Below are positions 9,594-23,995 of a DNA stretch of 64,000 bases, one piece after another. A model generated the notes under the pieces. The model did not search any database. It had not been told where the DNA came from and worked only from the letters and a program-made list of their open reading frames with translations. The stretch is from Bacteroidales bacterium (GTDB lineage: Bacteria > Bacteroidota > Bacteroidia > Bacteroidales > UBA10428), in the NCBI GenBank assembly GCA_016938235.1, contig JAFGVA010000058.1, forward strand, positions 62,001 through 126,000, read 5' to 3'. A program made the position numbers and the translations under genes. Position 1 is the stretch's first letter, and every line of letters begins with the position of its first letter.

Positions 9594-10511
9594 TTACCTG
9601 TACAGGTGAATGAAGCTACATTGATTATACCTGTCATCGGCAGCACCTGATACAGCTTCAAGAACATAATAATAAACGCCGGTTTCCATATTCTGGCCGT
9701 TGAAATTCCTTCCGTCCCAATAAATCTCAGGCGATTCCATGGCAAAAACTAAAACTCCTGTTCGGGTAAAAAGTTTAAATGACAGAATTACACCCGGATC
9801 ATCGGGAGTGATAGTGTAGTAAGTCTCTTCCTCAGGGATGAAAAAATTCTGAACAGGAAAGGCTGTTGTATCTCCAACAGTGTCGATTACCGGCAAATTG
9901 GTAACCTCTACCTCAACTGCTGTAGAGTCATAACAGTTTTCAGGGCTGTTTCTTAAATTGAGAGTGACCAGGTAATTTCCATAATCAGGGAATTCGAATG
10001 TGTCCGTTGCATTGTCCTGGTTTGCGGTGGTAGCTATTTTCGTAATAGTTCGTAAAGAGGTATTAGCCTCATCATAGTATGCCCACCTGAAAAAATAGCT
10101 TGATGCATCATCAGCAAGGGCATCTGAAGGCACCATGGCATAAATGTACGGAGCCTCAACCAGAACAGCCTCGAAGTCAGCAGAAATGCTTCCTCGATCA
10201 AATGATACTGTTCTTTGTGTTATAACATCGTTGGTGTTTAATCCCGAAACCAGCCTTACATCATAATCACCGGCCTTTTTAATAATATAATTAATGGGGC
10301 TGTTGTTGGTAATCGGAAAATTATCGGTACCAATCATATAAATCAGGCCAATATTTAAAGTGTCAAAATCAATGCTATCAGAATTTAGTGTAAAACTCAC
10401 AGTATCAGGCACACAGCCTCTTATTCCGGAAACCTGAATAAAATCCTGGGTATAAACCGAATATGAGAACAACAGACTTACTGTTAAAAAAAATATCGTT
10501 CTAAACTTCAT
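9594..10511 (-). CDS. Secreted protein with gliding-motility-associated (CHU/T9SS type B-like) C-terminal domain
   Basis: Signal peptide, PKD-like middle, C-terminal FKLFTRTGVLVFAMESPEIYWDGRNFNGQNMETGVYYYVLEA. Confidence 0.78.
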   Translation of the reverse strand: MKFRTIFFLTVSLLFSYSVYTQDFIQVSGIRGCVPDTVSFTLNSDSIDFDTLNIGLIYMIGTDNFPITNNSPINYIIKKAGDYDVRLVSGLNTNDVITQRTVSFDRGSISADFEAVLVEAPYIYAMVPSDALADDASSYFFRWAYYDEANTSLRTITKIATTANQDNATDTFEFPDYGNYLVTLNLRNSPENCYDSTAVEVEVTNLPVIDTVGDTTAFPVQNFFIPEEETYYTITPDDPGVILSFKLFTRTGVLVFAMESPEIYWDGRNFNGQNMETGVYYYVLEAVSGAADDRYNQCSFIHLYR

Positions 10512-15463: not shown

Positions 15464-18400
15464 TTAATTACATACAGTACGGTATTCAATATCGTTGCCA
15501 ATATAGGTATTCCACTCTTGTTGCGATAGCTGACGTACAATGAAATTACACATCTCATCGGCCATATTTTCAGCCTTAACAGGCCATCTGTAGATTAAAT
15601 TCTCATTATTACTCGATGTAATAAGCATATTTCCATCGGGACTAAAACTGAGTGAATTAACCCACGACTCCTGTTCTCTGATTTCAATTGGCAGATCATT
15701 CCAATCAGTTGCATTCCAGATTCGAACGACTCCATCCATACCCGAAGAAGCTATAAGCCTGTTATCTGGGCTGAAAGAGACAGCAAGTATTCTTGAAGAA
15801 TGAGCATTTATTGATTTTTGCAGATTTCCGCCAGCACTCAGAATCATTAAATTTCCATATTGGTCCGAGACTGCAATTTTCTCACTTTCAAAATCATAAG
15901 TAACAGCGGTTAATGGGCTTTTGTGGGTAAATATTATTTTACTTTGTTTGGTTCTAACATTCCATTCAATTAGCTGGCCATTATTAGTAGCGATTAATAC
16001 AGTTTTGCCATTTAGCGAAGTGCAGATATCATTTACGCCTGCTTGTTCCTGCAGAATTACAGTGCTTTCATCAACCAACAGATCCCAGTACTTTACTTTA
16101 TTATCGGTTCCTCTGGAAACCATAGCATTTCTTCCGGGGATAAAACAAATATCCAATACACTACCATCGTGTGCATCAAAAATTCTCGGGCGTTGTTCAG
16201 GCTGTAATGCATTTATCAGTTGTATTGTTCTTACCTCCAAACCTACAGCAATCCACCTGCCATCAATGGTCAGGGCAATGCAGGTATTTGCATCTTCGTT
16301 TGCAACAATTGAGACTGGAGTTGGTGTATTGTTTCTAAAACTCCATCTTTCCACATATCCTTCGTTATCGGAACTGTATAACAGATTTCTTGCCGGGTCG
16401 AAAAGCAAACAGGTAACAGAACCTTTCTGTCCTTTTAGCGTGTTATACTCCATCCCTTTAAGCTCGCGCAGGGCATAATAGAGGCCTCTGTATATTTCCG
16501 GATGGTTAATTTGTCCTCCATTTTCACGATTAATTAAATAGGCCTGGTAGGCTAATAAACCTGAAAGTTGTTTATCCGGAACCTGCAATGCTTTTAGGGC
16601 AACAGATTGAGAAAGCGTTATCATTCTTTTTTTCTTTTCCATCATTTTCTCAACTTCAAGCTTAGATAAGCCTTGTTGAGCTCTGATTGCCAGTTCCTCG
16701 GCCTGTTGTTTTTCCTGTTCAAACTGTTCGGCGTTTTTTTCTAATTCTGCTGTTCGCTGAGTAACCTCATCAATTAGCAGGTATGCCTGCTCAGTTTCTT
16801 CTTCCTGCTGCAGTATTTTCATTGTGCTGGCTTTCTCTAGAGAGTCTCTCTGGTGAAGTGCCAGTAACCTTTCATATTCCTTGACATGATATCCTCTTAC
16901 AGCAGTATCCTTCTCTGATTCAAGTATTTTTGCGTAGCCTTCGGCAAGTTCTTTTTGTTCGGTAGCTTCCAGGCTTAAATTATAGGTCCAAAACATGAGG
17001 GCAAAAAAGGCAATGGCAAAAAATCCCATAATTACAGCAAGCCTTCTTGTTCTGCGAAGTTCTCGTTTTTGAATCCTGACTTTAATTTCCTCCTCCTGCT
17101 GGAAGCGCTTTTCGCTGGTATTAAGATATACCATGGCTTTGTCAAACGCAATATTATAGCGTTTCGCCCAGGCACGGTTCGGGCTTTGATTTTTTTTCCA
17201 TGTACTTGCCAGGTGTAAATCAGGTGGGCGCATTAATCCTGTTCTGCCAATCTGGTATAATCCCGACAAATGCACTAAGCGTAAATACATTTCGGACGAT
17301 GCAGCCTCCTCATCAACCCAGTCTTTAAGTTTGTCCCAAACACGCATCAAACTTTCATGAGAAATATCTATTACAGAATCTTCGTTTAGCTCTATGCCAG
17401 CCGATGGGGTTAAGAATGATCTTCCAGGCTTTCGGAATACATTAATTACCTTAATTATTTCTGTTGGTTGTTTGAGAGAAAGCTCCGATATTTCTTTTAT
17501 AGTAATTGGTCTGCGTATGCCTTTCCCCTCTTTACCCTTGTCGGTGATTGACTTAAAAAAAACTTTGCATAATTGCCGTTCTTCATCATCCAGTTCATTA
17601 TAGGCTTCATTGGCGTGCAGCGAAAGGGCGTTCTCCAGTTTACCAGCCGACATATAATCGCGCATACTCAGCGGATTGTCGGGGGTATTGTTTTTAAGCC
17701 AGAATTTCCATGTACGCATTAGGGTATGCTGCAATACCGGCAACTGATCATTGTCTTTATCAAGATTATTAAGCAGGGTTTGCAATAAATTTGGCTCAAT
17801 TTCAACATTTGCTATCCTTAATGGGCCGGTTATAACATGCTCATAGTCTGTTCTTGTCATCAATGGAACCAGGTAGCTGCTTTTATTTATCAGTTGGGTA
17901 AGTCCATGAAAAACAGAACATTCTCCAATAAAATCGGAGCGCATGGTTATCACGATGTAAACTCTGGAATTGAGTTTTTTTGTGGTTTCCACCAGCAGGT
18001 TAACAAACTTTTCGGGATCATCGCCATGAGATTTAAGGGTTTTACGGCTTTCTTTATACCGGAATAATTCTTCAAACTGGTCAACAACAATAAGAAGGTT
18101 TTCATCGTTGGTGTGTAGAATTTGGTCGACAGCTTCACTTAACCCGAGCGAATGCCTCTTCAGTACTGCATAAAAGTAATTTATTACAGAGTCATCGGAA
18201 TCATCCTTCTGTTTTTCAGCATTTAGTTTTGCTATTCCTTTAGCAAGATTCCATATGGGAGTATTACCGGGGCGAATGGCTATTGTTTTCCAGTTAGTTC
18301 CTGCTTCGGGCATATACCCGCCGCATAATAACGGAATAACTCCGCAATAAATTAACGATGATTTACCGCTACCCGAGGCTCCGGTTATTACCGAGAATTT

Positions 18401-18535
18401 GTATCGTGATAAATAGTTAACTATTGTCTCGCTTTGACCTTCCCTGCCAAAAAACAAATGGCTCTCTTCCGGGTCGAAAGGTCTTAGACCAGGAAAAGGA
18501 TTTTGTAGATTTTTATGGAGATCAGATTGCTGCAT
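15464..18535 (-). CDS. nSTAND-type ATPase with TM segment, coiled coil and C-terminal seven-repeat WD40 propeller
   Basis: NPFPGLRPFDPEESHLFFGREGQ, Walker A VITGASGSGKSSLIY, Walker B NLLIVVDQFEELF, TM AVIMGFFAIAFFALMFWTY, about seven WD repeats (GHxxx...VRIWNA type), and the typical tail QLSQQEWNTYIG...YRTVC. Confidence 0.9.
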   Translation of the reverse strand: MQQSDLHKNLQNPFPGLRPFDPEESHLFFGREGQSETIVNYLSRYKFSVITGASGSGKSSLIYCGVIPLLCGGYMPEAGTNWKTIAIRPGNTPIWNLAKGIAKLNAEKQKDDSDDSVINYFYAVLKRHSLGLSEAVDQILHTNDENLLIVVDQFEELFRYKESRKTLKSHGDDPEKFVNLLVETTKKLNSRVYIVITMRSDFIGECSVFHGLTQLINKSSYLVPLMTRTDYEHVITGPLRIANVEIEPNLLQTLLNNLDKDNDQLPVLQHTLMRTWKFWLKNNTPDNPLSMRDYMSAGKLENALSLHANEAYNELDDEERQLCKVFFKSITDKGKEGKGIRRPITIKEISELSLKQPTEIIKVINVFRKPGRSFLTPSAGIELNEDSVIDISHESLMRVWDKLKDWVDEEAASSEMYLRLVHLSGLYQIGRTGLMRPPDLHLASTWKKNQSPNRAWAKRYNIAFDKAMVYLNTSEKRFQQEEEIKVRIQKRELRRTRRLAVIMGFFAIAFFALMFWTYNLSLEATEQKELAEGYAKILESEKDTAVRGYHVKEYERLLALHQRDSLEKASTMKILQQEEETEQAYLLIDEVTQRTAELEKNAEQFEQEKQQAEELAIRAQQGLSKLEVEKMMEKKKRMITLSQSVALKALQVPDKQLSGLLAYQAYLINRENGGQINHPEIYRGLYYALRELKGMEYNTLKGQKGSVTCLLFDPARNLLYSSDNEGYVERWSFRNNTPTPVSIVANEDANTCIALTIDGRWIAVGLEVRTIQLINALQPEQRPRIFDAHDGSVLDICFIPGRNAMVSRGTDNKVKYWDLLVDESTVILQEQAGVNDICTSLNGKTVLIATNNGQLIEWNVRTKQSKIIFTHKSPLTAVTYDFESEKIAVSDQYGNLMILSAGGNLQKSINAHSSRILAVSFSPDNRLIASSGMDGVVRIWNATDWNDLPIEIREQESWVNSLSFSPDGNMLITSSNNENLIYRWPVKAENMADEMCNFIVRQLSQQEWNTYIGNDIEYRTVCN

Positions 18536-18540
18536 ATTAA

Positions 18541-19932
18541 TTATTTCGAAAGTATTTGTAACAATTGTTTTTCGTCGGGTTGGTTATTTTCAATTGCAAT
18601 TATTTCTAAAGCATGGAGCCAGGGTTTGTATTTTTCGGTTAGCATGCTGCCTGCATATAATAGCACCATATTCTTAAAAGGCGAGTTCTTTCCCATTCCA
18701 ATAGCTTTTATAACATCACCAAGTTTGGTATCGAGCCATACCTGGTTATTGTCGGCAATTACAATAAGATTGTCGGTTTTTCGTAAGTTATTCAGGTGCT
18801 CAGTGTAGAAGTGTCCGCTTTTCTCATCGGTTTCAAAAAAAGAAACATTACTCATTTTGCCGATAATATCTTTTACTATTTTAGAATATTCAACATTATT
18901 AGAAACAATGTAATAGGTATTCTGCCTGTTATCTGGTTCTGCTTTATTAAAGTTATTCGAGGCAACAGTAAATTTGGTTGCCAGTAGCGCTTTGAATTCT
19001 TCCAGATTTGCTTCTATGATGAAGCTATTATCTGAAGAATCATCTTTTTTGAGCCTGTTAATAAACAATTGCTGTCGCGATTCTTTGATTTCCATATCGC
19101 CCGGAATCCATATGTAGCGCTGTTTATTTGGGTTGCTGGCAATATGCTCTCTTATTATTGAATTCTCAAATTCGGCGAAGGAGTATTTTTCGCCTCTCCG
19201 AACATTTTCGTATTTTCCGCCAACAGCCTGAATGATAAGCTGACAGCTTTCAAGTTCTTTTTTAATAATTTCCTGAGTGCTTTCAGACTGATCGTTGTAA
19301 TTAAAAACCGGCAAAACTTTGTATCCGTAGTAAAGCAATTCTCTTTTAATATCAAGCCAGTATTGTTTTTGCTCCTGAACGTAACTTCCCAGGTAAGCAA
19401 AGTTATGAACTGCTTTTTCTTCTTTAAGCAGAGTAGTGTCTTTGATATCGTAAACCAAATCCAGAACTACCGACCATAATTTTGTATCTTCTGAAGAGCT
19501 TTCGAATGGTTTTGCATTTCTGCCCCTTCCGGGAAAGTCAAAAAACTCATATGCAATTAGTTTTTTGAGTGTTTCAGGTTGTTCAATAATATCGTTTGGT
19601 TCGAGCAGCAGTTTAGAAAATCTCAGGGATTTATTTAATACTTGTTTATCTGAAAGTAGCGCTGTTTCTATTCCATTTAGGTTTTCTTTAACAACTTCAT
19701 TTTGATTTATACTGGAATCAAGTATAAGTAAATAATAATCGTTGATGTTATTTGTAATATGCAAAGCCTGTTCCAGGTTTATTTTTTTTATTGTTGTTCT
19801 GAATGTTGGGAAAAGAACTTTTTTGGCAGCAAAATCTAACGATTGTATGATGTCTTCGATAGCTTTCTTGTTGTTATCTGTTTCGAAAAGGGCAATATTT
19901 ATATTCATGTTATGTTGTTCCATTCCCTCCAT
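18541..19932 (-). CDS. DUF4062/TIR-like multidomain protein, partner of the nSTAND ATPase
   Basis: FAYLGSYVQEQKQYWLDIKRELLYYGYKVLPVF...CQLIIQAVGGKYE...FAEFENSIIREH...RYIWIPGDMEIKESRQQLFINRL. This pattern is typical of TIR-like domains fused or linked to nSTAND proteins. An inner ATG (MNINIALFETD) may be the true start. Confidence 0.6.
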   Translation of the reverse strand: MEGMEQHNMNINIALFETDNNKKAIEDIIQSLDFAAKKVLFPTFRTTIKKINLEQALHITNNINDYYLLILDSSINQNEVVKENLNGIETALLSDKQVLNKSLRFSKLLLEPNDIIEQPETLKKLIAYEFFDFPGRGRNAKPFESSSEDTKLWSVVLDLVYDIKDTTLLKEEKAVHNFAYLGSYVQEQKQYWLDIKRELLYYGYKVLPVFNYNDQSESTQEIIKKELESCQLIIQAVGGKYENVRRGEKYSFAEFENSIIREHIASNPNKQRYIWIPGDMEIKESRQQLFINRLKKDDSSDNSFIIEANLEEFKALLATKFTVASNNFNKAEPDNRQNTYYIVSNNVEYSKIVKDIIGKMSNVSFFETDEKSGHFYTEHLNNLRKTDNLIVIADNNQVWLDTKLGDVIKAIGMGKNSPFKNMVLLYAGSMLTEKYKPWLHALEIIAIENNQPDEKQLLQILSK

Positions 19933-22900
19933 TTAATTTGAAGTTTTCGATTGAATCCAATATGCAGTTTGCAAAGTCAAAATTGTCGTACAAAAGTTCG
20001 TTAACTACTATATCCTTAAAACACCATAGCACACCCTCTGATTTCAAAGTTAAAGATTTAATATTTAAAGCCTTTAACAAGCCTACATGAATAATTGCTG
20101 ATTTTGTGCTAAACTTCTGGCCATTTAAAGGCAGCAATTCTGTTCCAGAAACAATAAGAGAATAATCTTTAAGGTGTTCTTCAACTTCAATAATTTCGGT
20201 TGATTTAAAGCTAAGTTCATGAGCATTTTGGGCCAGTGTTTGCAATACGAATTCACTTAAATTTGTTAAGCCCTGTATCTGTTTAAATTTTATAAGTTTT
20301 GATGCAATAAGCCCCTTATATGTTTCTAATATTTCAGATTCCGGAATGGCTTTCCGATAATTAGCTTTGCTTTTCTTTTTGAGATTTTGAGGCAGGTTTA
20401 TTCTACTTCTTACGAAATGAGCCGTTTCGCTTAAAACTTTCTCAGGATGTGAAGCACAGAAACTAATTTCATCTTCGAAGTCGTGTATTTTTAACCTGTC
20501 AATCAGGATTAATGCACAGATTCGCGGATATATTGTCAGCGAGTTAAAATCACTTGTTAATGTTTGATAAAATATTTCCTGCAATGAAGGTTTGGGTTGT
20601 GGAAAATAGTAGTCTAAACGTTCAATTTTTTCATCCAGGCTGATATCCTCTACAAAACTAAATATTAAGGATTTTATATCGGCATCAATATATTGGTCTG
20701 CCAACTCAACAGAGAAACTAATTTCTGCCCTGCTGCCTTCAAGGAACATTTTGTGCAAGGAGCCAATAATATTCGGATTATATATAAGCGAAAGCAGCTT
20801 GAAAAGCTTGTCGGTATTTGCTTCAATTTCGTTTTTATAAGCATTACAGAGTATTTCCAGGGCAGTTTTTTTATTCAAAAACCGGTAGGTGTTAAGATGT
20901 GATGTAATTATTCCGGAAAGTTTGACGATGTAATCCAATATCTTGTAAATATTATCTTTTGATGCCTGGAACTTTGTCTCTATAAGTGTGTTAATAGAAT
21001 TATTCAGAATGTATGAATCTGCCGATTCTAATTTTGAAAGTAAAAGGTTTGTTGCTTTCGTCGTATTAATTTTTCCTAATAAATGCAAAATTCTGCCCAG
21101 CACCTGATTATCCAGTTCCGGAACATTGAGTTCACGTTCCAGAAAATACAATGAAGCATCTTTTAAAGAAACAATAGCCTCAAAGGCATAAGGATTAAAT
21201 GATTGGGGGTAAATAAAGTCCAGCAATATGTAGGTATATTTTTCATCGCCGGTTTTTGCGAGCAGGCGAATGGCTAAATTCCGAATGTCTTCATGTAAAT
21301 CTTTTGAAAGACTTAATAAGATGCTCTCTTTATCGGGTAAATTACTATAGAAAAGTGCATAAACAGCTTGAACACGAACAAATAAATCAGTTGATAAAAG
21401 CTGTGACTTTATTTGATATTCCGATAATACATTTTTACTTGAGAGTTGGTGAAGTTTATCTATTACAATCCGGCATTTTTTTAAAGCTTCACCATTCAGG
21501 GTATTTATTTTCTGTTCCAGCACATGCAGTGCGTCAACTATGAGCTTTTCGTCAATTTTAGTCAGAATATAATTAAAGAGCTTATCAGATGGGTGTGATA
21601 TAAGTTTAATAAGATCGTTCTCATATTCAACCGGATAAAACCTCGCGGTAATATCTAAAGCTAAAATGATTTTTTCAATTTCTTCAGAAGAAAACAGTTT
21701 TGACTTTCGCTCGTCATAACTAATGAATCTTTCAGATAAATTACGGTTGTACCTGAATTTTCCTATAATACTTTCTTGTTCTTTTTTAAAACTCTTTATC
21801 ATTCTAACAGCGTTCCAGAACCAGAAACCAGCTAAAACAATAGCCAATATTAATACCATGGTGAGGCTGTAATATTTAAAGAATGAAAGACCTAAAATCA
21901 GTATACTCACAAACAGCAACCCGGTAAATCTTGCTGTCCCTTCGATGCGAGGATAGGCCGACTGTCTGATTCGAAGATCCAGACTGTGAAAAAGCGTTTG
22001 AAAAGATCTTTTCTCGATTAAACGATAGGCGCTCAGGTAACCGACCTGCAACATGGCTATCATTAAAAAGAAAAGGGAGAAGTGTTCCCGGGCTAATACA
22101 TTTCCGGCAAGAATTTTAACAAGAAGGGCCAGAAAAAGCGCTATTATTAAGATGGGAGGTAAAAGTGCCAGGCTGTAAGGAGAATCGTATGAATATAAAA
22201 GTCGTTTGATAAGATACCTGTCAACCCCATAGATAAACACCAGTAAAACCACAATGAACAGGCTGTAGAACTTAGTCATTCCATAAAAACTTCTGAACCC
22301 AATCCATGCTGTATTAATGAACACATAATGAATGGCGAATCCGACCATTGATGACAATATAGCATAAAAAAGTACCTGGCGGCTGTATTTAGTCGAAAAA
22401 AACAGTTTGTAGCTTTTCTGAACAGGAATAAACTTTTCTTTTTCCTTTATTGGAAAATCAGCTTTATAAAAAAGATAGATAACTACAAACTGAAGCAGTA
22501 AAATAGCAAATAAGCTGGAAAAGGAAATTACTACTCCAAGTCGGTAATAGAACAGGTAAATGACAAACAAAATACTAATACCGCTGAGCAACATTCCAAA
22601 CGAAAAATAAAAATTCATTTTTGGATAGACTATTCGTGTGGCTTCGGGTAAAAGTAATTTTCTGATAAATCTCCAAAGTACCAGAATTGTAAGAATATTT
22701 ACCGGGAAGAAGCAAATCATCCCATATAGTTCTGTATAAATATAGTCGGTGTAAAGATTAAGGATATAGTAGGCTCCACAGGTAATTACAACCAAAGTAA
22801 GAATTGTAACAAGCAATATTTTCGGATTCATTTTTTTATAAAGACGAGAATAGGCGTAGCTCACCACAATTCCCGAGAAACCTGAAATTATATAGGTGCC

Positions 22901-23056
22901 GGCTAAATCTTTATATCCAAAACCTAAAAAGAAATTTGAATGTACAAGAATGTCAAAAGAACCAATAAAAAAGCCCGTAAAAGCCACCAGTAAATAATAG
23001 CTGAATAAAAAAATATTTTGTCGTTTACTGAATTTTTGTAGGATTACTGAGGGCAT
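19910..23056 (-). CDS. NTT (ATP/ADP translocase)/MFS-like membrane protein with HEAT-repeat region and degenerate C-terminal cNMP-binding-like domain
   Basis: About 12 hydrophobic segments in the first ~430 aa, HEAT-like helical repeats (SDKLFNYILTKIDEKLIVDALHVLEQ, DLHEDIRNLAIRLLAKTGDEKYTYILLDFI), and a C-terminal domain reading like a cNMP-binding fold. Confidence 0.65.
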   Translation of the reverse strand: MPSVILQKFSKRQNIFLFSYYLLVAFTGFFIGSFDILVHSNFFLGFGYKDLAGTYIISGFSGIVVSYAYSRLYKKMNPKILLVTILTLVVITCGAYYILNLYTDYIYTELYGMICFFPVNILTILVLWRFIRKLLLPEATRIVYPKMNFYFSFGMLLSGISILFVIYLFYYRLGVVISFSSLFAILLLQFVVIYLFYKADFPIKEKEKFIPVQKSYKLFFSTKYSRQVLFYAILSSMVGFAIHYVFINTAWIGFRSFYGMTKFYSLFIVVLLVFIYGVDRYLIKRLLYSYDSPYSLALLPPILIIALFLALLVKILAGNVLAREHFSLFFLMIAMLQVGYLSAYRLIEKRSFQTLFHSLDLRIRQSAYPRIEGTARFTGLLFVSILILGLSFFKYYSLTMVLILAIVLAGFWFWNAVRMIKSFKKEQESIIGKFRYNRNLSERFISYDERKSKLFSSEEIEKIILALDITARFYPVEYENDLIKLISHPSDKLFNYILTKIDEKLIVDALHVLEQKINTLNGEALKKCRIVIDKLHQLSSKNVLSEYQIKSQLLSTDLFVRVQAVYALFYSNLPDKESILLSLSKDLHEDIRNLAIRLLAKTGDEKYTYILLDFIYPQSFNPYAFEAIVSLKDASLYFLERELNVPELDNQVLGRILHLLGKINTTKATNLLLSKLESADSYILNNSINTLIETKFQASKDNIYKILDYIVKLSGIITSHLNTYRFLNKKTALEILCNAYKNEIEANTDKLFKLLSLIYNPNIIGSLHKMFLEGSRAEISFSVELADQYIDADIKSLIFSFVEDISLDEKIERLDYYFPQPKPSLQEIFYQTLTSDFNSLTIYPRICALILIDRLKIHDFEDEISFCASHPEKVLSETAHFVRSRINLPQNLKKKSKANYRKAIPESEILETYKGLIASKLIKFKQIQGLTNLSEFVLQTLAQNAHELSFKSTEIIEVEEHLKDYSLIVSGTELLPLNGQKFSTKSAIIHVGLLKALNIKSLTLKSEGVLWCFKDIVVNELLYDNFDFANCILDSIENFKLNGGNGTT

Positions 23057-23206: not shown

Positions 23207-23995
23207 GTGGAAATGTTATTTGATCCCGCTAAAGATATCAATAAGTATCATCAAAGACGAGAACTAGTATTTATTATTTTGTCAGGCTTGTTTGTTGGAA
23301 CACTTGCCATGCTTAATATCCTGGGCATCACCAGGCTCATAGACCTTTCATTTAGTGTATTCGGAATAGAAATACCCTTTACCGTTTTTGTTGGAGTTTT
23401 GCCTTATCCGATAACTTTTTTATGCACAGATATAATTAGTGAATTATATGGCAAACGTAGAGCAACTTATGTAGTCTGGACCGGTTTTATATTAAACATA
23501 TGGGTGATTTTTATTCTATGGATTGGAGGCATTTTACCACCAACACCCGAAATTCAAAGTGAGACAGGGTTGCCGGTTCCCGGTTCATCAGATTATATCT
23601 TTTATCAGCTTAGAAGATACACCTTCAGTGCTACCACAGCATCGATGATTGCATACCTTACAGCACAATTTGTTGATGTACATGTGTTTCACTATTTGAA
23701 GAAATTATCGAAAGGAAAGTTGTTGTGGCTAAGAAATAATGGGTCAACGCTTACCAGTCAGTTGGTTGACTCTTTATCGGTTGTTTTGATAACTTATTTC
23801 TTTACGAATGCGATACGTATTCCCGGTGATTATTCCGCAACTCATTATTTGTTTATTCTGATTGCTTCAAACTATGTGTTTAAAATGGTAGCCGCTTTGG
23901 TCGATACAATTCCTTTCTATATCAGCGTTCGCAGACTTTCGGTATACCTTAATATTGATCCAAATGCTGAATTTCATGAAGAGAAACCCGGATAG
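23207..23995 (+). CDS. Queuosine precursor transporter (YhhQ/QueT-like)
   Basis: VFVGVLPYPITFLCTDIISELYGKRRATYVVWTGF, LTAQFVDVHVFHYLK, STLTSQLVDSLSVVLITYFF. Confidence 0.9.
   Translation: MEMLFDPAKDINKYHQRRELVFIILSGLFVGTLAMLNILGITRLIDLSFSVFGIEIPFTVFVGVLPYPITFLCTDIISELYGKRRATYVVWTGFILNIWVIFILWIGGILPPTPEIQSETGLPVPGSSDYIFYQLRRYTFSATTASMIAYLTAQFVDVHVFHYLKKLSKGKLLWLRNNGSTLTSQLVDSLSVVLITYFFTNAIRIPGDYSATHYLFILIASNYVFKMVAALVDTIPFYISVRRLSVYLNIDPNAEFHEEKPG

What the first reader, a model, noticed from the sequence alone, without database searches (positions are those of the whole stretch)
15464..23056. Three-gene operon: NTT/MFS-HEAT membrane protein, TIR-like protein, nSTAND ATPase with WD40 propeller
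Seen: three minus-strand ORFs packed with a 23-nt overlap (19910-19932) and a 5-nt gap (18536-18540), bounded by a divergent promoter region and a terminator. Established: nSTAND ATPases with WD40 sensors and TIR/DUF4062-like partners are recurrent in bacterial conflict and signalling systems, usually as single fusion proteins. Inference: here the modules are split into separate translationally coupled genes and joined to a large 12-TM plus HEAT protein, suggesting a membrane-associated sensing or cell-fate complex, possibly defence. This is my best candidate for an undescribed system.
Basis: partly seen in the sequence, partly recalled or inferred. Interest (0 to 1): 0.75.

Follow-up and report, generated by a model that had tools for sequence, protein, structure and literature searches.

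The report
Envelope-spanning STAND ATPase operon in Bacteroidota
Three linked genes form the core of an undescribed, widely conserved Bacteroidota operon that appears to connect an apoptosome-like ATPase inside the cell to a sensor and a giant surface protein outside it; this copy has lost the outer parts.

Summary
The three ORFs exist exactly as stated, and their co-conservation is overwhelming. The trio is not the whole unit. In 66 of 68 relatives with enough downstream sequence, the nSTAND gene is followed at once by an outer-membrane barrel gene and a lipoprotein gene. In 39 of 42 with room, a giant ORF (≥1000 aa) comes next; nearly all the complete ones end in a type IX secretion tail. 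About half of the operons also carry a HAMP-SpoIIE gene. The ATPase is therefore predicted cytoplasmic and the WD40 propeller periplasmic. The middle protein is three TIR-like domains, the central one DUF4062. Its NADase catalytic Glu is Gln in 56/65 relatives. The first protein is an NTT-HEAT-cNBD protein. The operon follows bacterial phylogeny and often sits beside the same housekeeping gene. No neighbouring defence gene was found. Defence is thus disfavoured; I propose a trans-envelope STAND switch that reads or controls a surface module. The window copy and its sister are a derived, stripped form: outer module lost, catalytic Glu present. I found no published description of the operon. Function is inferred, not shown.

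The parts
19910..23056 (-). Gene 1: NTT/MFS-HEAT-cNBD-like membrane protein, 1048 aa; single copy in the genome
21749..23026 (-). Gene 1 residues 11-436: 12-TM NTT-like fold
   Evidence: AF2 model; top Foldseek hits AtNTT1 and chlamydial NTT1, prob 1.00, TMt 0.63-0.71
20282..21718 (-). Gene 1 residues 447-925: HEAT-like alpha solenoid, predicted cytoplasmic
   Evidence: AF2 helices; Pfam HEAT_2
19946..20269 (-). Gene 1 residues 930-1037: cNMP-binding-like beta domain, degenerate in this copy
   Evidence: family profile A8 positions about 910-1050 hit canonical PF00027 domains elsewhere; the window domain itself has no Pfam hit
18541..19932 (-). Gene 2: protein of three TIR-like/DUF4062-like Rossmannoid domains, 463 aa
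18949..19404 (-). Gene 2 residues 177-328: DUF4062 domain
   Evidence: PF13271 in 37 of 65 relatives; KpSwz profile hit
19165..19167 (-). Codon for E256, the column of the KpSwz E97 NADase catalytic Glu; Gln in 56 of 65 relatives, Glu here and in sister L040
18547..18921 (-). Gene 2 residues 338-462: third TIR-like domain, with family-invariant W399, D406 and K409
15464..18535 (-). Gene 3: nSTAND1 NTPase - TM - stalk - WD40 propeller, 1023 aa
17270..18499 (-). Gene 3 residues 13-422: nSTAND1 NTPase domain, predicted cytoplasmic
   Evidence: PF20703 E=7.4e-89
18356..18382 (-). Walker A GASGSGKSS (residues 52-60)
   Evidence: G52, G55, G57, K58 and S60 invariant in 17 homologues
16985..17041 (-). 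Gene 3 residues 499-517: single transmembrane helix
   Evidence: hydropathy; 80 of 80 homologues, N-side more positive in 80 of 80
15581..16438 (-). Gene 3 residues 700-985: WD40 propeller, predicted periplasmic
23207..23995 (+). Divergent Vut_1 gene, a conserved syntenic neighbour and not part of the system
   Evidence: PF02592 E=2e-44; immediately upstream of gene 1 in 26 of 59 relatives

Best explanation
A trans-envelope STAND signalling operon. The nSTAND NTPase sits in the cytoplasm, tethered by one TM helix to a periplasmic coiled stalk and WD40 propeller. In most relatives the propeller would read the state of a co-encoded outer module: an outer-membrane barrel, a lipoprotein and a giant type IX-secreted surface protein. 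Ligand-driven release would let the nSTAND domains oligomerise with ATP. The triple TIR-like protein is, in most members, probably a non-catalytic adaptor or scaffold that docks on the nSTAND ring. The NTT-HEAT-cNBD protein is probably the membrane-anchored, nucleotide-responsive partner. The SpoIIE-type phosphatase, where present, would relay the signal to secretion, adhesion or gene expression. The window copy is a derived minimal form without outer module or SpoIIE gene, so it must sense another periplasmic cue. Shown here: gene content, order, co-occurrence, topology prediction, loss of the outer-membrane gene in two sister genomes, and the Glu/Gln pattern. Inferred: sensing, oligomerisation, docking and output.
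For: Operon order HEAT-(SpoIIE)-TIR3-nSTAND-OMP-LIP-giant, with median gaps 1 bp (TIR-nSTAND), 7 bp (nSTAND-OMP) and 1 bp (OMP-LIP). OMP and LIP in 66 of 68, HEAT in 58 of 61, TIR in 56 of 61 with room. Giant ORF of at least 1000 aa next in 39 of 42; nearly all the complete ones end in a type IX sorting tail. The reverse seed (gene 2) finds nSTAND beside every hit. Genome co-occurrence P about 3e-28. TM with positive-inside N side in 80 of 80. Some members carry a SPOR-like periplasmic extension after the WD40 (E 0.006 and 0.019, below cut-off). Lipobox-like motif in 64 of 74 LIP proteins. OMP orthologue absent from the window genome and from the genome of sister L040, present full-length in three relatives; window+L040 nested among full-operon members. 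All 17 operon genomes have SprA, though 187 of 198 do.
Against: No experiment. The periplasmic WD40 location rests on one TM helix and charge bias. SpoIIE is missing from about half of the operons and the outer module from the window copy, so neither can be essential to the core. The SprA correlation is uninformative because nearly all genomes in the order have it. No protein-protein contact was modelled.
Confidence: 0.45

Rival explanations
1. Anti-phage or cell-death system: the TIR-like/DUF4062 protein is an NADase effector held by the nSTAND-WD40 sensor, a split counterpart of TEP1/APAF-1-like fusions or of Swarozyc.
For: DUF4062 is an experimentally shown TIR-like NADase in KpSwz and TEP1, and TEP1 combines DUF4062 with NACHT and WD40 (PMC13174449). 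Window and L040 copies carry Glu at the catalytic column. nSTAND/TIR pairs are common in conflict systems (PMC7159879, PMC10907252).
Against: Catalytic Glu is Gln in 56 of 65 relatives. Tree congruent with bacterial orders, conserved Vut_1 synteny, no defence neighbours of the window copy. Co-operonic with outer-membrane and secreted surface proteins. No PADLOC match for genes 1-2 beyond a weak HEAT hit.
Confidence: 0.2
2. Structural or mechanical system: the proteins form an inner-to-outer-membrane scaffold that anchors, assembles or moves the giant surface protein, and ATP hydrolysis powers assembly rather than signalling.
For: Coiled stalk and SPOR-like domain, OMP and lipoprotein, giant type IX cargo with PKD/SprB/Ig repeats in one operon.
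Against: The window copy and L040 keep the intact core without any outer module beside it and without the OMP gene anywhere, and a HAMP sensor with a SpoIIE domain in half of the operons argues for regulation.
Confidence: 0.2
3. Nucleotide or energy transport regulation: the NTT-HEAT-cNBD protein is a nucleotide exchanger gated by the nSTAND/TIR-like proteins.
For: Fold closest to ATP/ADP translocators; NTT-HEAT-cNBD fusions are a known family of unknown function (PMC5381601); cNBD-type C-terminus.
Against: No Pfam NTT (PF03219) hit for the window protein; MFS_1 only in some relatives. Does not explain the outer-membrane module. NTT-HEAT relatives also occur without the operon (51 genomes against 41).
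Confidence: 0.1

Closest known systems
TEP1 / NWD1 / NPHP3-type DUF4062-NACHT-WD40 proteins and APAF-1
   Same: TIR-like (DUF4062) or adaptor module plus STAND NTPase plus WD40 sensor (PMC13174449)
   Different: Split into two genes here; a TM helix puts the ATPase and the WD40 on opposite sides of the inner membrane; DUF4062 Glu mostly replaced by Gln; three TIR-like domains
Swarozyc (KpSwz) DUF4062 anti-phage NADase
   Same: DUF4062 fold; profile hit to KpSwz; catalytic column aligned through a canonical homologue
   Different: KpSwz is a stand-alone protein in defence islands with a conserved Glu; here an operonic three-domain protein, mostly Gln, no defence island seen
NTT-HEAT(-cNBD) fusion proteins (PMC5381601)
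   Same: 12-TM NTT-like fold, HEAT solenoid and C-terminal cNBD-type domain
   Different: No PF03219 match; consistently operonic with nSTAND and TIR-like genes; the paper passages read mention a neighbouring cNBD gene but no such operon
STAND/ternary conflict systems (PMC7159879, PMC10907252)
   Same: nSTAND NTPase with sensor and TIR-type partners
   Different: Those are described as conflict systems and partly diversified by DGRs; this one is coupled to outer-membrane and type IX-secreted proteins
PG1058 and other T9SS accessory proteins (PMC5053529)
   Same: WD40 protein acting in the Bacteroidota envelope
   Different: PG1058 is a single multidomain T9SS component with no STAND ATPase (domain content from general knowledge)

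Membership tests
nSTAND1 NTPases | PF20703 domain with intact Walker A/B | tested here: met
   E=7.4e-89; GASGSGKSS and VVDQFEE invariant residues
WD40 beta-propeller proteins | multiple PF00400 repeats | tested here: met
   4 stretches, whole-protein score above cut-off, E=9e-30
DUF4062 TIR-like NADases (Swarozyc/TEP1 type) | DUF4062 fold/sequence | tested here: met
   37 of 65 family members match PF13271 at E<=0.01; window copy only E=0.052, below cut-off; fold supported by AF2 and Foldseek NDT hits
DUF4062 TIR-like NADases (Swarozyc/TEP1 type) | conserved catalytic Glu (KpSwz E97) | tested here: inconclusive
   met in the window copy (E256) and L040; not met in 56 of 65 relatives (Gln)
DUF4062 TIR-like NADases (Swarozyc/TEP1 type) | NADase activity or phage protection | not testable with these tools
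   needs enzymology and phage assays
Anti-phage defence systems | location in defence islands / horizontal spread | tested here: not met
   ten sampled window neighbours have no credible PADLOC hit (the RecA-mad8 hit at 4e-4 is RecA homology); conserved Vut_1 synteny and order-level tree congruence. Neighbours of the other loci were not scanned against PADLOC
NTT-HEAT-cNBD fusion family | NTT-type 12-TM domain | tested here: inconclusive
   fold best matches NTT structures but no PF03219 sequence hit
NTT-HEAT-cNBD fusion family | HEAT solenoid and cNBD at the C-terminus | tested here: met
   HEAT_2; family profile matches PF00027 domains; degenerate in the window copy
Type IX secretion-linked operon (full form) | downstream OMP, lipoprotein and type IX-tailed giant protein | tested here: not met
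   absent beside the window trio; no OMP orthologue in the genome, best E=0.009, lipoprotein profile only weak or partial hits; present in relatives

The most novel reading that the evidence does not exclude
A bacterial trans-envelope apoptosome-like machine: a STAND ATPase and TIR-like adaptor inside the cell read a giant type IX-secreted surface protein through a periplasmic WD40 propeller. In the window lineage the core broke free of its surface module and kept or regained the NADase Glu, possibly becoming a stand-alone stress or defence switch.
Probability: 0.25. Interest if true: 0.85.

Novelty: new variant of a known kind. Interest (0 to 1): 0.62.

Why it matters
STAND ATPases with WD40 sensors are usually thought of as cytoplasmic death or immunity switches. 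A family in which the ATPase and its sensor lie on opposite sides of the inner membrane, genetically welded to an outer-membrane and secreted module, would extend STAND signalling to surface sensing. It would give a function to NTT-HEAT-cNBD proteins, whose role was reported as unknown, and offer a natural pseudo-enzyme form of DUF4062. Isolates carrying the operon exist (Reichenbachiella, Imperialibacter, Fulvivirga, Raineya, Dawidia, Shiella, Perlabentimonas), so it can be tested.

Tried and rejected
Defence island: ten window neighbours scanned against PADLOC, none credible. SprA/type IX co-occurrence: all 17 operon genomes positive, but 187 of 198 are, so uninformative. Special divergence of the WD40 part in the window lineage: not seen; nSTAND and WD40 both diverged. 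Promoters and terminators: not above shuffles. Rfam: nothing. NACHT (PF05729) as marker: hits only an unrelated locus. Viral fold library: only generic MFS proteins. PDB fold search of the whole three-domain gene 2 gave no E<0.001; single-domain NDT-type hits (DNPH1, BcmB; prob 1.00, TMt 0.63-0.70) were used instead. Literature searches found no paper on the operon.

Full report
OBSERVATION. The three minus-strand ORFs are present at the stated coordinates, with a 5-nt gap and a 23-nt overlap. Gene 1 (19910-23056) has 12 TM helices, a HEAT solenoid and a C-terminal beta domain in a confident AlphaFold2 model (pLDDT 86.4). Its best fold matches are the ATP/ADP translocators AtNTT1 and chlamydial NTT1. 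The family profile of its C-terminus hits canonical cNMP-binding domains in other proteins, although the window's own domain has no Pfam match. Gene 2 (18541-19932) is three Rossmannoid TIR-like domains (pLDDT 84.8). Of 65 relatives, 37 match DUF4062 and 25 match TIR_2, and single-domain fold matches are nucleoside deoxyribosyltransferase-like proteins. Gene 3 (15464-18535) is nSTAND1 plus WD40. The claimed terminator was not found, and promoter hits are not above chance.

TOPOLOGY. Gene 3 has one TM helix (residues 499-517) preceded by eight K/R. All 80 best homologues have it, all with the more positive flank on the nSTAND side. By the positive-inside rule the ATPase is cytoplasmic and the stalk and WD40 are periplasmic. 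Two relatives carry SPOR-like C-terminal extensions (weak, below cut-off), which fits a periplasmic end.

THE REAL UNIT. Starting from gene 2, 17 of 198 genomes of the order have a homologue, and every hit lies beside an nSTAND-WD40 gene. Starting from the nSTAND family, the 80 best loci from public genomes show one order: gene 1, optional HAMP-SpoIIE, gene 2, gene 3, an OMP_b-brl_2 barrel, a lipoprotein, then a giant ORF. Where there is room, HEAT occurs in 58 and TIR in 56 of 61, and OMP and LIP in 66 of 68. A giant ORF of at least 1000 aa follows in 39 of 42; nearly all the complete ones end in a type IX sorting tail. Because these 80 loci were chosen as the best nSTAND matches, I also compared genomes. 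Among 198 genomes of the order, nSTAND (41) and NTT-HEAT (51) co-occur in 39 against 10.6 expected (P about 3e-28), within 10 kb in 33 of 41.

THE WINDOW COPY IS DERIVED. Its closest relative, L040, also lacks the outer module. The OMP orthologue is missing from both whole genomes, while three related genomes have full-length copies. The lipoprotein profile finds only weak or partial hits in the window genome, and the SpoIIE profile matches only C-terminal SpoIIE domains of other proteins. In the nSTAND tree, window+L040 sit inside a 14-row Bacteroidales clade whose other members have the OMP, so loss is the simplest reading. The window lies on a 184-kb contig of a 99% complete bin, so assembly gaps are an unlikely cause.

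CATALYTIC RESIDUE. A 2026 preprint shows DUF4062 is a TIR-like NADase family needing one Glu (KpSwz E97, TEP1 E1008; PMC13174449). A canonical DUF4062 homologue aligns its Glu with the mutated position of KpSwz in the PDB chain. The same column is P0002 residue 256. It is Gln in 56 of 65 family members but Glu in the window copy and in L040. Most members are therefore probably not NADases; the window copy could be.

DEFENCE? Against it: the nSTAND tree clusters by bacterial order (5 label changes, 24.4 in shuffles). Vut_1 is the immediate upstream gene in 26 of 59 relatives and beside the window copy. The window neighbours are RecA, thymidylate synthase, an AI-2E family transporter and a flavodiiron-like protein, with no credible PADLOC hit. 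PADLOC was not run on the neighbours of the other loci.

MECHANISM. The best reading is a trans-envelope STAND switch with a periplasmic propeller, a TIR-like adaptor and an NTT-HEAT-cNBD membrane partner, normally coupled to a secreted surface module. Anatomy and co-inheritance are shown; ligand, oligomerisation and output are inferred.

KNOWN OR NEW. Each domain family is known. NTT-HEAT-cNBD fusions were described in 2017 without function (PMC5381601), and DUF4062-NACHT-WD40 fusions are known in TEP1 and relatives. The operon, the membrane split of the STAND protein and its tie to a secreted giant protein were not found in the open-access library searched. That library lacks most subscription papers, so novelty is not certain.

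Noticed in passing
L167:183-2057 (-): A cNMP-binding domain fused to a fumarase/aspartase-type lyase (Lyase_1 plus FumaraseC_C), 624 aa, in a related genome.
   Followed up: no
L026:5920-6279 and L030:3245-3604: C-terminal SPOR-like extension after the WD40 propeller of the nSTAND protein (Pfam E 0.006 and 0.019), suggesting peptidoglycan binding.
   Followed up: partly
L084, L088, L094, L095, L096 upstream of gene 1: A second gene matching the TIR-like (gene 2) family profile upstream of the NTT-HEAT gene.
   Followed up: no
L112:10001-13093: nSTAND homologue in a Cytophagales bin preceded by a 1676-aa ORF, without the OMP or lipoprotein genes: a different context.
   Followed up: no
window 9594-10511 (-): Small PKD plus CHU_C type IX secretion cargo next to recA.
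   Followed up: no
L121-L123, L127-L129, L137-L139: Other Bacteroidota DUF4062-like proteins also carry Gln at the catalytic column, so the Glu-to-Gln form is wider than this operon.
   Followed up: partly
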